64,000 bases of DNA from Methanoregulaceae archaeon (GTDB lineage Archaea; Halobacteriota; Methanomicrobia; Methanomicrobiales; Methanospirillaceae): contig JACTVG010000002.1 in assembly GCA_015660965.1 (NCBI GenBank), forward strand, positions 62,001 through 126,000, in the 5' to 3' direction. Positions 6,182 to 60,766 of the stretch are shown piece by piece. Positions within the stretch are counted from its first letter, which is position 1; every line of letters begins with the position of its first letter. Position numbers and translations under genes: made by a program. The notes under the pieces are model-generated. The model was given only the letters and a program-made list of their open reading frames with translations, made no database searches and was not told the DNA's origin.

Positions 6182-7375
6182 ATGTCGAAAGGAACTATTG
6201 TTCTTGCATATTCAGGAGGGCTTGATACATCTATCTGTATCCCTCTGTTAAAAGAGCGATATGGATATGACCGTGTTATAACAGTTGTTGTGAATGTTGG
6301 GCAACGGGATGAAGAGATCAGTAATGCAACAGCCAAAGGGAAATTGTTGGCCGATAAGCACTATACTATAGATGCCCGAGAAAAGTTTGTTAAAAACCAC
6401 ATTTTTCCAGCAATTAAAGCAAACGGATCGTATGAGGGTTATCCGATGGGAACATCTCTTGCACGTCCGTTGATTGCCCAAGAAGTTGTTAAGGTTGCTA
6501 AAAAAGAGGGAGCAACAGCTATTGCTCATGGATGTACTGGAAAAGGTAACGATCAGTTCAGATTTGATGTTATTATTAGAGGTGCCGGTCTTGATGTTGT
6601 GGCACCAATACGGGAATTAAACTTGACACGTGATTGGGAGATAAAATATGCAAAAGAGCATAAAATCCCAGTAACGGTAAAAAGTGGAAAACCTTGGAGT
6701 ATTGATGAGAACTGTTGGAGCCGAAGTATTGAAGGAGGAAAGCTTGAGGATCCAACATATCATCCGAACGAAGAGATTTATCTCTGGACAACAGCACCAA
6801 AACAGGCTCTAAATAAACCAGAAGTAATCACTATCCAATTCATAAAGGGAGTCCCTGTATCCCTCAATGGCAAAAAAATAGATGGATATCAACTTATTCA
6901 AAAGCTGAATATGCTCGCTGGAAAACACGGTATAGGTCGTAACGATCTTATTGAAGATAGAGTTCTTGGGTTGAAAGCACGAGAAAATTATGAGCACCCC
7001 GCAGCAACAGTTCTTCTTACAGCACATCGAGATCTTGAAAGTATTGTGCTTAGTCGACAAGAAATCGCCTTCAAACGAATTGTAGATGACAAATGGTCAG
7101 AACTTGCGTATATGGGTCTTATTAGTGAGCCTTTATACATGGCTTTGAATGCATTTATAGATAAAACACAAGAGCGAGTTAATGGCAGTGTAGATTTAGA
7201 ATTATTTAAAGGAACTGTCCGCGTTCTTGGTAGAAAATCTCCTAATGCATTATATTCTAGTGATTTAGTTTCATTTGACAGTTCTTCTTTGGATCAGTGT
7301 CATGCTATTGGTGTATCTTACTACTATGGGATACAAGGACGAATGCTAAATCAATTTACAAAAAAGAAAAAATAA
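6182..7375 (+). CDS. argG: Argininosuccinate synthase
   Basis: About 397 residues from the ATG at 6182, chosen because a GGAG sits nine bases before it and the product then starts [17 protein letters not shown]. That stretch is the N-type ATP pyrophosphatase P-loop. Later motifs include [10 protein letters not shown] and [13 protein letters not shown], both characteristic of the family. The enzyme condenses citrulline and aspartate with ATP to argininosuccinate in arginine synthesis. argF, which makes citrulline, lies nearby at 9816-10730 on the other strand. Confidence 0.97.
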
Positions 7376-57451: not shown

Positions 57452-57928
57452 TCAGAGATTTTTTAATGCTATTAGATCCTTAACACCAACAAGTTTCCAA
57501 ACTAATGAACGTTCTTCTTCAGCGATTGCGGCAGGAGCATCTTCAGGTGAGTGCCCAAGAGCGGCAAGGATATTACAAGAAAGATCTCGATCGACAATCA
57601 AATCAACAAACTTTTCACGAACCACCTTCTTTTCAATAGAATCATACACTTCTTCAAGGTATCCTTGAAGAGTCACAAACATGTAAGATGAAAGATCCTT
57701 AGAATATCTCTCAACCTCGACCGATACATATGGACTTTTTCTAAAATATTCGAGTTTTTTACCATATTTTGTTGAGAGGAAATACAAAAAAGAACCATCG
57801 AATACATATAGGAATGGTGCAATATATGGGTATTTTTCTCCTTGAAAAGCTATTCGGCAAATATATCCCTTATCAATAAGCCGATCATATTCTTTTTTCT
57901 CCATTCTAGGAATCTTTATGATATCCAT
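57452..57928 (-). CDS. Pyridoxamine 5'-phosphate oxidase family / nitroreductase-like flavoprotein
   Basis: About 158 residues from ATG 57928, giving MDIIKIPRMEKKEYDRLI; earlier TTG (57955) and ATG (57937) codons are possible. The split-barrel pattern YICRIAFQGEKYPYIAPFLY and FLSTKYGKKLEYFRKSP identifies the family. The C-terminus adds a helical part with EERSLVWKL. Flavin or F420 is the likely cofactor; substrate unknown. Confidence 0.82.
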   Translation of the reverse strand: MDIIKIPRMEKKEYDRLIDKGYICRIAFQGEKYPYIAPFLYVFDGSFLYFLSTKYGKKLEYFRKSPYVSVEVERYSKDLSSYMFVTLQGYLEEVYDSIEKKVVREKFVDLIVDRDLSCNILAALGHSPEDAPAAIAEEERSLVWKLVGVKDLIALKNL

Positions 57929-58002
57929 ATTTACCATCTGATGTAAACGAGACAAGATAAATCTTCTTACATGAATTTTGAATACAAAAAGAAAATTTCA
58001 CT

Positions 58003-59376
58003 TTATTTCATTATTGGATAGCCTGCTTTCTTCCAAGCGGTCATACCACCAAGGACATTTGTGATTTTTTTGAATCTATTTTTTGCTAGATAACTTGCAG
58101 CCAGACTTCCCTTGTAACCTGCATCACAATACACAATAATTTGTTTATCTATAGGAATTTTGTCGAGATGGTTTGGTAACTCTCCGACATAAATGTGGTT
58201 AGCTCCCTTGATGTAACCGACAGATCTGTAATTTTTGATATCCCTAACATCGAGAAGATAATATGATTCAGACTCCAACTGATTGTTAAGATGTTGCACA
58301 GAACAGGTTTGAAAAGATGCGATCTCTTGAGCACTTTTACACCAAAAAGGAAAACCTCCTGCAACATAACCTCTAATATTGTCATATCCTAAGCGAACAA
58401 AATGCTGTAAAACAGTTTCGAGACCGACATTGAAATCGTCAACCAAGATAATAGGGTGTTGATAATCGAGGTAATAACCTATAAAGTTGGGAATTCCATC
58501 ACGCCAAATCGAGAGACTTTGCGGGATATGTCCAGATGCGAAAGATGTAGGTGAACGAATATCAACAATTTGAGCATTTTCCTTTTTCAAATTGTTGATT
58601 TCTTTAATTTCTAATGGGGGAAAGTACGGAAGTCGTGAAAGGATCGGCACTCCTTCTTTGTTCAATTTTTCCATTTGTCTAAAGTATGGGGGGACATATG
58701 GGGATTCATTCAATCGTAATTCGATAAATGCCTGCCGACCCATTAGTAGTAAACGATTTGTTCTTTTCTCATAGCCAATGCTTGTCAATGGATGGTCAGT
58801 AATTTCTCCACCACATACGGATCCAGCTCCATGTGCTGGACAAATAATTGTCCCATCACCAAGTGGTAAGATCTTTTTTGTAATATTATCAAAAATTTTA
58901 GCTGCCATTTCAGCCCTATGATCTCGGCCATAAAAATCTGTACGGGCTATATCCCCAGCAAAGAGTGTGTCCCCACAAAAAACCATGTAGGCATTTGGAG
59001 AAACATCTTTGTCACACAGAACTAACGATATGCTCTCTTCGGTATGACCTGGGGTTTCAAGTACGGTAAGTTCCAATGAACCGAATGCGAAAGTATCTCC
59101 TTCACGGACAGTATTCCCGTAAGAAAATTGTATTTGGGCACTGTGATAGATTTCAGCACCGCACCGTGAAACGAGTTCTTTTGAACCAATGCAATAATCC
59201 TCATTCCGATGAGTTTCGAAAATGTGGGTTATTACCATGTCATTTTTATCTGCAATTTCGATATATACATCACAATCGCGGCGTGGATCGATAACCGCAC
59301 ATTTTCCACCAGAACCAATTAGATAAGAATTGTGAGCGATACCTTCAGATATTATTCGTTCAAATAACATTGACAT
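58003..59376 (-). CDS. MBL-fold hydrolase with two C-terminal rhodanese domains
   Basis: 457 residues. The N-terminal metallo-beta-lactamase fold has VITHIFETHRNEDYCIGS in place of the canonical H-x-H-x-D-H, then TPGHTEESI and FCGDTLFAGD. Two rhodanese domains follow (about 265-360 and 370-457). The second keeps an active-site loop VYCDAGYKGS with Cys; the first has LVDDFNVG with no Cys, so it is probably inactive. This architecture belongs to persulfide-related enzymes such as persulfide dioxygenase-rhodanese fusions. Confidence 0.88.
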   Translation of the reverse strand: MSMLFERIISEGIAHNSYLIGSGGKCAVIDPRRDCDVYIEIADKNDMVITHIFETHRNEDYCIGSKELVSRCGAEIYHSAQIQFSYGNTVREGDTFAFGSLELTVLETPGHTEESISLVLCDKDVSPNAYMVFCGDTLFAGDIARTDFYGRDHRAEMAAKIFDNITKKILPLGDGTIICPAHGAGSVCGGEITDHPLTSIGYEKRTNRLLLMGRQAFIELRLNESPYVPPYFRQMEKLNKEGVPILSRLPYFPPLEIKEINNLKKENAQIVDIRSPTSFASGHIPQSLSIWRDGIPNFIGYYLDYQHPIILVDDFNVGLETVLQHFVRLGYDNIRGYVAGGFPFWCKSAQEIASFQTCSVQHLNNQLESESYYLLDVRDIKNYRSVGYIKGANHIYVGELPNHLDKIPIDKQIIVYCDAGYKGSLAASYLAKNRFKKITNVLGGMTAWKKAGYPIMK

Positions 59377-59443: not shown

Positions 59444-60766
59444 TTATCTGAGAAAAATATATTTTTCCTGAGGATTTAACTGATGACCTTTTATGATATT
59501 GTATAGCTCGGAAAGACTCATAGGTTGATATTTGATAACCTCAGCGCTGACGTTAATTCTTCGTTTTTCAAAATTAATGAATGGATACTCTTCAAGGTTG
59601 TTATTGTGGTGGTGGCCGTGTATAATCCACCCATCGAAATTTGGGGGTGCATCATTTGGATCATGAATGGGTAAAAAATGTAGATCTAAATGGGTTAATA
59701 TTTCAAAATGAACTGGTGATTCTGTATCTTTATCATGATTTCCTTGGATTAAAATAATATCTCCATTCAACCGTTGTAAATATTCAAATGGAGTTTTTGC
59801 ATTCGGTCCGTAGCAGAGATCCCCAATAAGAAAGATTCTGTCTCCAGATTTTACTGTATAATTCCAATTCTTGATTAGAATTTGATCCATTTCATGCACA
59901 GCGTCATGGGGAAAAGGTCTTGAACAGTATTTTATAATATTTGCATGTCCCAGATGAAGGTCACTAATAACGTAGATATCCGGTGTTTTAGAGAAAACAG
60001 GGTGGGTTAATTCTATGTTGTTGCTTATTCTGTATTTTTGAAGTGTTTTATGCCATTCAACTATTGAGGTATCCCCATTTTGGGATACCCATCGATTATT
60101 AAAGAGATCATATTCGGCAAGGATTTTCTCTCCATTTATGACAGAAATACGTAATCCATCTTCATCTAACAATGGCGATTTTAAAGAAGAATGATTATCA
60201 GTTTCTCTGACCTTTGATTTAAAAAAAAGAAAAATTTTGGTAAAAAAATTTGTTTTAATTAATGATTTGCATGAGACCGTTCTGGATTGCCCAACCAGAT
60301 CTCTAAAAATGTTAGACGCTCTATTTCTGTCAAGTCTGTTCGCAATAGTGACGTGAAACCATTTTTTGTCTGGATTTTGATCCCATATATTTAGTGTTTC
60401 TGCAAAATCTCTAATACTTTTTACAATCGCTTCAGTTAATTCAATAAGCGCGTCAGTAGGGTCAATCTTATAGGCGATCACAGCACCATTGAGACCTTGG
60501 TTCATTTCGTATCCATGAATGAAGAAAGGGATAACTCCAAAAGGTTTTGCTGCAATTTCTATTGCATTCAAAAGTTGGGGAATTGCAATTTCCTTTTTAA
60601 GATGAAATGGCCCAAATAGAGTTAGATGCGGATGTTTTTCAATAAATTTTTCAATATGATATATTTGACCGATCTTCGCTGTGGTCTTTTTAATTCTCCA
60701 TTTTGTCCTTCCTAATCGAATTTCGATAAGGAATATATTATCAAGAAATGGACTTGTCATGACCAC
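59444..60766 (-). CDS. Fusion of 2H phosphoesterase (LigT-like) and calcineurin-type phosphoesterase
   Basis: 440 residues. The N-terminal part has two H-x-T motifs, HLT (residues 47-49) and HVT (138-140), spaced as in 2H phosphoesterases and 2'-5' RNA ligases. A linker and basic segment follow (about 150-260). The C-terminal part is a metallophosphoesterase: VISDLHLGH (D269, H271), GDLCYG, GNHDKD and HGHHHNN. Both active sites look intact. Probable role: 2',3'-cyclic or similar RNA-phosphate processing followed by dephosphorylation, inferred from the pair. Confidence 0.87.
   Translation of the reverse strand: MVMTSPFLDNIFLIEIRLGRTKWRIKKTTAKIGQIYHIEKFIEKHPHLTLFGPFHLKKEIAIPQLLNAIEIAAKPFGVIPFFIHGYEMNQGLNGAVIAYKIDPTDALIELTEAIVKSIRDFAETLNIWDQNPDKKWFHVTIANRLDRNRASNIFRDLVGQSRTVSCKSLIKTNFFTKIFLFFKSKVRETDNHSSLKSPLLDEDGLRISVINGEKILAEYDLFNNRWVSQNGDTSIVEWHKTLQKYRISNNIELTHPVFSKTPDIYVISDLHLGHANIIKYCSRPFPHDAVHEMDQILIKNWNYTVKSGDRIFLIGDLCYGPNAKTPFEYLQRLNGDIILIQGNHDKDTESPVHFEILTHLDLHFLPIHDPNDAPPNFDGWIIHGHHHNNNLEEYPFINFEKRRINVSAEVIKYQPMSLSELYNIIKGHQLNPQEKYIFLR

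What the first reader, a model, noticed from the sequence alone, without database searches (positions are those of the whole stretch)
59444..60766. Two phosphoesterase families fused in one protein
A 2H phosphoesterase/LigT-like domain with two intact H-x-T motifs is followed by a calcineurin-like domain with all metal motifs. I do not know of a characterised protein with this pair. It suggests stepwise chemistry on cyclic-phosphate RNA or nucleotide ends.
Basis: partly seen in the sequence, partly recalled or inferred. Interest (0 to 1): 0.65.

Follow-up and report, generated by a model that had tools for sequence, protein, structure and literature searches.

The report
Archaeal 2H–metallophosphoesterase fusion enzyme
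In many methane-producing archaea and a few ammonia-oxidiser relatives, two unrelated phosphate-cutting enzymes are joined in one protein whose two active sites are usually both intact; it probably opens and then removes cyclic phosphates on RNA or nucleotides, but nobody appears to have studied it.

Summary
The 440-codon ORF (window 59444-60766, minus strand; Methanoregula-like archaeon) holds an N-terminal 2H phosphoesterase with both HxT motifs and a C-terminal calcineurin-like metallophosphoesterase (MPE) with all metal motifs. It is not an assembly artefact: the fused ORF is in about 35 of 61 relatives, other families of the phylum and Nitrososphaerota, including single-contig genomes. 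AlphaFold gives one confident model (pLDDT 91, pTM 0.88). The MPE is of the COG4186/cd07390 type (nearest structure 1XM7).

Best reading: sequential ring opening and phosphate removal on 2',3'-cyclic ends or nucleotides, not ADP-ribose cyclic phosphate and not a feeder of classical sealing. Substrate and function remain inferred.

The parts
59444..60766 (-). whole coding sequence of the 2H-MPE fusion protein (440 aa; GTG start, alternative ATG at 60760)
   Evidence: full-length homologues
60287..60745 (-). 2H phosphoesterase core (residues 8-160)
   Evidence: PF13563 above cut-off; fold hits to plant CPDase 1JH6, Usb1, YjcG, LigT
60620..60628 (-). first HxT motif, H47-L-T49
   Evidence: invariant in the 13 closest full-length relatives
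60347..60355 (-). second HxT motif, H138-V-T140
60176..60265 (-). variable, low-confidence insert (residues 168-197)
   Evidence: pLDDT about 60 or less in the blocks 161-190; gappy alignment columns
60083..60172 (-). beta-hairpin (residues 199-228; R206, D220, W226 invariant in alignment A1) that also ends stand-alone 2H proteins, so it belongs to the 2H part
60023..60076 (-). connecting helix (residues 231-248, with invariant R246)
59477..59983 (-). calcineurin-like metallophosphoesterase domain (residues 262-430), COG4186 / cd07390 type
   Evidence: phrog_547 2e-39; 1XM7; viral COG4186 protein by fold; cd07390 named in the annotation of a homologue
59954..59962 (-). metal motif DxH (D269-L-H271)
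59819..59824 (-). metal motif GD (G315-D316)
59732..59743 (-). metal motif GNHD (residues 342-345)
59663..59665 (-). metal-ligand histidine H368
   Evidence: invariant
59606..59617 (-). metal motif GHxH (G384-H-H-H387)

Best explanation
A genuine, conserved archaeal two-domain enzyme. The 2H domain opens a 2',3'-cyclic phosphate (on RNA 3' ends, short oligonucleotides or 2',3'-cyclic mononucleotides) to a 2'- or 3'-monophosphate, and the tethered metal-dependent MPE domain then removes that phosphate, leaving a 2',3'-diol. The organism has RtcB but none of the searched ATP-dependent ligases, Clp1 kinase or KptA. The product is therefore more likely to serve turnover and salvage of RNA ends, or to withdraw ends from RtcB, than classical healing-and-sealing. 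Shown here: the fusion, intact motifs, conservation, an unfused two-gene form, and separate loss of either site. Inferred: substrate, order of reactions, biological role.
For: Both active sites are intact in most fused members, invariant in the 13 closest full-length proteins. dN/dS is 0.10-0.28 in both the 2H core and the MPE domain for six pairs of relatives, so both are under purifying selection. The same 2H and MPE proteins occur as adjacent genes with 1-bp (L155) and 4-bp (L085) gaps and a Shine-Dalgarno-like stretch before the MPE, an independent sign that they work together. The 2H fold matches cyclic phosphodiesterases. Reviewed 2H enzymes open 2',3'-cyclic phosphates to a 2'- or 3'-phosphate (PMC9503650, PMC5591277), and calcineurin-like domains are proposed to remove the resulting phosphate in phage RNA repair (PMC7824862). 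RtcB is present in 59/61, KptA absent in 61/61, Rnl3 absent in 61/61, PF09414 absent in 8/8 of the genus, and Clp1 only at noise level in the genus. A separate ThpR is present in 59/61, so this is an extra 2H enzyme.
Against: Eleven non-redundant fused proteins have lost both 2H histidines but keep the MPE, and two keep the 2H but have lost MPE ligands, so a strictly coupled two-step reaction is not needed everywhere. No conserved RNA-processing gene lies next to it in Methanoregula: the neighbours are an MBL-fold/rhodanese protein, a PPOX-like protein, MutS/MutL and pyruvoyl arginine decarboxylase. A control test of RNA-repair genes near viral MPE homologues gave only 3 of 56 against 0 of 44. 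No activity of any family member is known to me.
Confidence: 0.45

Rival explanations
1. The MPE is the main catalyst and the 2H domain mainly binds or positions an RNA or nucleotide substrate; its own catalysis is optional.
For: MPE motifs are complete in nearly all members, while the 2H histidines are lost in 11 non-redundant fused proteins that still keep the degenerate 2H domain rather than deleting it. The model of such a protein still finds a 2H enzyme (4YE2) by fold.
Against: In the branch that holds the window both HxT motifs are invariant and under purifying selection. Two lineages kept the 2H and lost the MPE ligands.
Confidence: 0.22
2. The protein degrades nucleotide second messengers (2'-5' oligonucleotides or cyclic oligonucleotides) and so tunes or resets a signalling or defence system.
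For: 2H relatives degrade 2-5A and CBASS cyclic oligonucleotides (established knowledge); weak fold hits to a viral 2'-5' PDE and to Acb1. Nitrososphaerota and one other lineage carry a Nudix gene nearby, and one member lies next to a nucleotidyltransferase-HEPN pair.
Against: No PADLOC match. In Methanoregula the gene sits in a stable chromosomal neighbourhood, not a defence island. The Acb1 match is weak (E about 5e-3).
Confidence: 0.13
3. The enzyme clears end-blocks for an unrecognised RNA ligase, i.e. it is the healing half of a healing-and-sealing pathway.
For: Of 18 annotated phage neighbourhoods of MPE homologues, 7 hold an RNA ligase, RtcB, PNK or Thg1 within 4 kb (Thg1 by Pfam). Reviews propose calcineurin-like phosphatases for this step (PMC7824862).
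Against: KptA, Rnl3-type ligase and PF09414 ligase are absent and Clp1 is at noise level in the genus. RtcB needs the cyclic phosphate or 3'-phosphate that this protein would remove. The phage association was weak in a larger controlled set.
Confidence: 0.1
4. Two unrelated activities joined by chance and kept because the junction is harmless.
For: Frequent splitting and loss of either part.
Against: A tight operon form in a paralogous branch, presence across two archaeal phyla, and a confident single model with an invariant junction (R206, D220, W226, R246).
Confidence: 0.08
5. Assembly or frameshift artefact.
For: None found.
Against: Fused ORFs without internal stops in dozens of independent assemblies, including single-contig genomes and a record titled complete genome.
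Confidence: 0.01

Closest known systems
2H phosphoesterase superfamily (plant CPDase 1JH6, LigT/ThpR, YjcG, Usb1; Pfam PF13563)
   Same: bilobal 2H fold and two HxT motifs
   Different: carries a variable insert and a conserved EYDL hairpin, then an MPE domain; not matched by the ThpR model TIGR02258 in the NCBIfam scan, and the genome has a separate ThpR
COG4186 / cd07390 metallophosphoesterases (1XM7 from Aquifex; phage 'phosphoesterase' phrog_547)
   Same: MPE core, all metal motifs, the N-I-I...RPF and NW motifs
   Different: the known members seen here are stand-alone (about 170-210 aa); none of the 898-1126 phage records or 46 plasmid records with a match holds a place that covers the whole protein
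RNA end-healing enzymes (fungal tRNA ligase CPD domain; Clostridium Pnkp phosphatase, from memory)
   Same: the same two chemistries, cyclic phosphodiesterase or MPE end-healing, built into multidomain proteins
   Different: those carry kinase and/or ligase modules; this has neither and pairs 2H with MPE
CpdB-type periplasmic 2',3'-cyclic phosphodiesterase/3'-nucleotidase (from memory)
   Same: two-step cyclic nucleotide to nucleoside is the reaction pair proposed here
   Different: CpdB is an MPE plus 5'-nucleotidase C-terminal domain, with no 2H domain
PdeM, ligase-associated DNA-damage MPE (TIGR04123)
   Same: weak MPE similarity (37 bits)
   Different: far below the 150-bit cut-off; no partner DNA ligase gene seen beside it

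Membership tests
2H phosphoesterase superfamily | two HxT/S motifs about 90 residues apart | tested here: met
   H47-L-T49 and H138-V-T140
2H phosphoesterase superfamily | 2H fold | tested here: met
   AF2 model pLDDT 91; fold hits 1JH6, YjcG, Usb1, LigT
2H phosphoesterase superfamily | phosphodiesterase activity on 2',3'-cyclic or 2'-5' phosphates | not testable with these tools
   needs an assay
ThpR / LigT (TIGR02258) | match above the family cut-off of 65.7 bits | tested here: not met
   not among NCBIfam hits up to E=1; the genome's ThpR is another gene, G000:C4
calcineurin-like metallophosphoesterases | DxH, GD, GNH[DE], H, GHxH metal motifs | tested here: met
   all eight ligand positions
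calcineurin-like metallophosphoesterases | Pfam match above cut-off | tested here: inconclusive
   Metallophos_2 17 bits against 27 for the window protein; relatives L137, L153 and L136 pass for PF12850 or PF00149
COG4186 / cd07390 (AQ1575-like) MPE | nearest described group of MPEs by sequence and fold | tested here: met
   1XM7 is the best sequence and fold match; phrog_547 2e-39; the cd07390 name comes from the annotation of a homologue, the CDD model itself was not run
PdeM (TIGR04123) | match above the 150-bit cut-off | tested here: not met
   37 bits
healing-and-sealing RNA repair (Pnkp/Trl1 type) | kinase and ATP-dependent ligase in the protein or genome | tested here: not met
   no kinase or ligase domain in the protein; Rnl3 0/61, PF09414 0/8, Clp1 only at noise level in the genus
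KptA-dependent ADP-ribose 1'',2''-cyclic phosphate pathway | KptA/Tpt1 in the genome | tested here: not met
   0 of 61 relatives; positive in 3 control genomes

The most novel reading that the evidence does not exclude
A previously undescribed class of archaeal cyclic-phosphate 'eraser': one polypeptide with two unrelated active sites that takes 2',3'-cyclic phosphate ends or nucleotides to the diol and so competes with RtcB for RNA ends. It shuttles in evolution between fused, operon, 2H-only and MPE-only forms, with each site retired in some lineages.
Probability: 0.3. Interest if true: 0.6.

Novelty: new variant of a known kind. Interest (0 to 1): 0.43.

Why it matters
Cyclic-phosphate RNA ends are the substrates that RtcB ligates and the products of many RNases and toxins. 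An archaeal enzyme that erases them in two tethered steps would be a natural counterweight to RtcB and would give the poorly characterised COG4186 MPE family a testable substrate. The natural variants (2H-dead, MPE-dead, two-gene) are ready-made controls for dissecting how the sites cooperate.

Tried and rejected
Artefact or frameshift: rejected. ADP-ribose cyclic phosphate substrate: no KptA in 61 genomes. Feeding an ATP-dependent ligase: the searched ligase families are missing in this genus. Horizontal or viral origin of the fusion: no fused form seen in phages, plasmids or IMG/VR; only MPE alone. Defence system: no PADLOC match. RNA-repair linkage of viral MPE homologues: 7 of 18 annotated phages looked promising, but a larger set of 56 loci gave 3 against 0 of 44 controls, so it is weak; the control sets are not matched for phage type, and one planned control search returned nothing. 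Conserved functional neighbours: in Methanoregula only a syntenic MBL-rhodanese/PPOX/MutS block. A third domain in L145 (780 aa) is probably only an open overlapping frame. Number of independent 2H losses: the MPE tree needs 5 changes, but starred branches force only 1, and the 2H tree joins all losers on long branches, so it stays between 1 and 5. Literature: no paper found with the terms for this pair, in an open-licence library only; Mazumder 2002 is not held.

Full report
OBSERVATION. The ORF at 59444-60766 (minus strand, 440 aa, GTG start with a possible ATG two codons in) is as described. Pfam finds 2_5_RNA_ligase2 (PF13563) at residues 45-157 above its cut-off. Metallophos_2 is found at 264-393 below cut-off, but PHROG 547 'phosphoesterase' matches 257-434 at 2e-39, and 1XM7, an MPE of unknown function from Aquifex, is the only PDB match by sequence. 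Both HxT motifs (H47-L-T49, H138-V-T140) and every MPE metal motif (D269-x-H271, G315-D316, GNHD 342-345, H368, GHxH 384-387) are present. More distant members score above the curated cut-offs for both kinds of Pfam family (L137, L153, L136).

NOT AN ARTEFACT. In 61 related genomes about 35 carry the match in one frame of at least 400 aa, including all 8 of the genus (the 35 is my count of the table). In 246 genomes of the phylum roughly 28 carry fused ORFs (again my count), several in single-contig genomes and spread over several family codes. Named relatives are mostly Methanoregula and other Methanomicrobiales, with further fused proteins in Nitrososphaerota MAGs (L066, L074, L079) and more in a sample of 300 genomes around L066 (G319, G483, G542). 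In that sample only 10 of 300 had any match, so it is rare there.

ANATOMY. AlphaFold2 on a 51-sequence alignment gives mean pLDDT 91 and pTM 0.88. Fold search recovers 1XM7 for the MPE half, and plant CPDase, Usb1, YjcG and LigT for the 2H half; no listed entry covers both. The 2H core (8-160) is followed by a variable, low-confidence insert (168-197), a hairpin with near-invariant R206, D220 and W226, a helix with R246, then the MPE (262-430). Stand-alone 2H proteins in relatives carry the same EYDL hairpin, so the hairpin belongs to the 2H part and is not a linker invented for the fusion.

FUSED, PAIRED AND SINGLE FORMS. A profile scan of all fetched loci shows 2H+MPE in one ORF, 2H-only and MPE-only forms. 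Two loci hold adjacent, unfused genes. In G032 (L155) the 2H stop (1674-1676) and the MPE ATG (1678) are 1 bp apart, with GGGAGG upstream. In a Methanoregula fen_60 contig (L085) the gap is 4 bp with GGGAAGG upstream. Each of these genomes also carries the fused gene elsewhere (L010; L058, whose frame is broken in the MPE half). G145 has 2H and MPE frames in the same order, with the MPE frame broken (L161). In one Methanomicrobiales group, 2H-only genes (L112, L113, L115) stand beside the same ferredoxin and/or UPF0280-like genes as fused genes do in sister genera (L064-L073; gene names here are my reading of the sequences). In the 2H tree, L113 (2H-only) is sister to L021 (fused) with a starred branch. 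So the MPE has been gained or lost at one locus; the tree does not say which.

SEPARATE LOSS OF THE TWO SITES. Among non-redundant fused proteins, 11 have lost both 2H histidines while all eight MPE ligands stay. L016 and L154 show the reverse, an intact 2H with 5/8 and 3/8 MPE ligands. The 2H-dead proteins keep a 2H-like fold: in a moderate model (pLDDT 72) the viral 2'-5' PDE 4YE2 is still found at E 3e-3. Where both sites are intact both are selected: dN/dS 0.13-0.28 for the 2H core and 0.10-0.20 for the MPE over six pairs. The number of independent 2H losses cannot be fixed: the MPE tree needs five changes but strong branches force only one, and the 2H tree joins the losers on long branches. 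In the MPE tree all fused and most other archaeal MPEs lie together on a starred branch, apart from the bacterial and phage MPEs.

GENOMIC SETTING. In Methanoregula the gene lies 67 bp upstream of an MBL-fold/rhodanese gene on the same strand, then a PPOX-like gene and MutS/MutL; these neighbours are shared by 22-31 of the 50 loci examined. This says little about function. RtcB is in 59 of 61 relatives and a separate ThpR in 59 of 61. KptA is in none of 61, Rnl3-type ligase in none of 61, PF09414 ligase in none of 8 of the genus. Clp1 kinase is only at noise level in the genus, though clearly present in 22 of the other relatives. All these searches rang in control genomes. The window's own genome has just two PF13563 proteins, ThpR and this one.

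MECHANISM. From established knowledge, most 2H enzymes open 2',3'-cyclic phosphates to a 2'-phosphate, yeast Usb1 to a 3'-phosphate (PMC9503650, PMC5591277), and calcineurin-like phosphatases are proposed to remove such phosphates in phage RNA repair (PMC7824862). The best reading is therefore cyclic phosphate to monoester to hydroxyl by the two tethered sites. With only RtcB as a recognised RNA ligase, such an enzyme would remove RtcB's substrates rather than prepare ends for ligation, so RNA-end turnover, quality control or 2',3'-cNMP salvage fit better than healing-and-sealing. The substrate, the order of steps and the role are inferred, not shown. The main rival is that the MPE does the work and the 2H domain binds the substrate.

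TESTS THAT DID NOT HELP. Of 18 annotated phage neighbourhoods with stand-alone MPE homologues, 7 held an RNA ligase, RtcB, PNK or Thg1 within 4 kb. In 56 non-redundant IMG/VR loci the same kinds of gene were found in only 3, against 0 of 44 control loci. This is at most a weak hint. No fused form was found in phages, plasmids or viral contigs, and there is no PADLOC match.

NOVELTY. Both domains are known families; the pairing is not described in any paper I could search (open-licence library only, so absence is weak evidence). I file it as a new domain architecture of known kinds. Interest is moderate: the chemistry is guessable, but the operon form, the separate losses and the lack of classical repair partners make a sharp, cheap test possible.

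Noticed in passing
L074 8712-9104; L079 9473-9985; L161 158-679 (minus); L163 about 6366-6528: A Nudix gene of one family (44-50% identity) lies beside the 2H-MPE or 2H gene in three lineages, and as a deleted remnant in a fourth (G129).
   Followed up: partly
L162 4344-5594, L165 5279-5560 (minus), L167 2958-4529, L172 95-931, L174 2-1051, L177 607-1485: Genes next to 2H-only, MPE-only or fused forms outside Methanoregula repeatedly encode AN1 zinc-finger proteins, two of them with a transglutaminase-like domain, or CAP-domain proteins.
   Followed up: partly
L066 11288-12274: The fused gene of a Nitrosotalea MAG is followed by a nucleotidyltransferase (Polbeta/NTP_transf_2) and a HEPN protein, as in toxin-antitoxin pairs.
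   Followed up: partly
L174 2224-3216: A transposase-like ORF interrupts the fused gene of G542 after the GHxH region; G112 (L138) and G341 (L176) copies are also interrupted in the MPE half.
   Followed up: partly
L066, L074, L079 (residue 385 position): Nitrososphaerota members read HGDKHN instead of HGHxHN, an Asp in place of the first GHxH histidine.
   Followed up: no
L118 3289-4104 and 4268-4738: Phaeobacter phage MD18 has a Thg1 (tRNA-His guanylyltransferase, PF04446) gene two genes upstream of its MPE; its MPE has Cys in place of the first metal Asp.
   Followed up: partly
window 57452-59376: MBL-fold/rhodanese protein and PPOX-like protein form a conserved block downstream of the fusion gene in Methanoregula.
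   Followed up: partly
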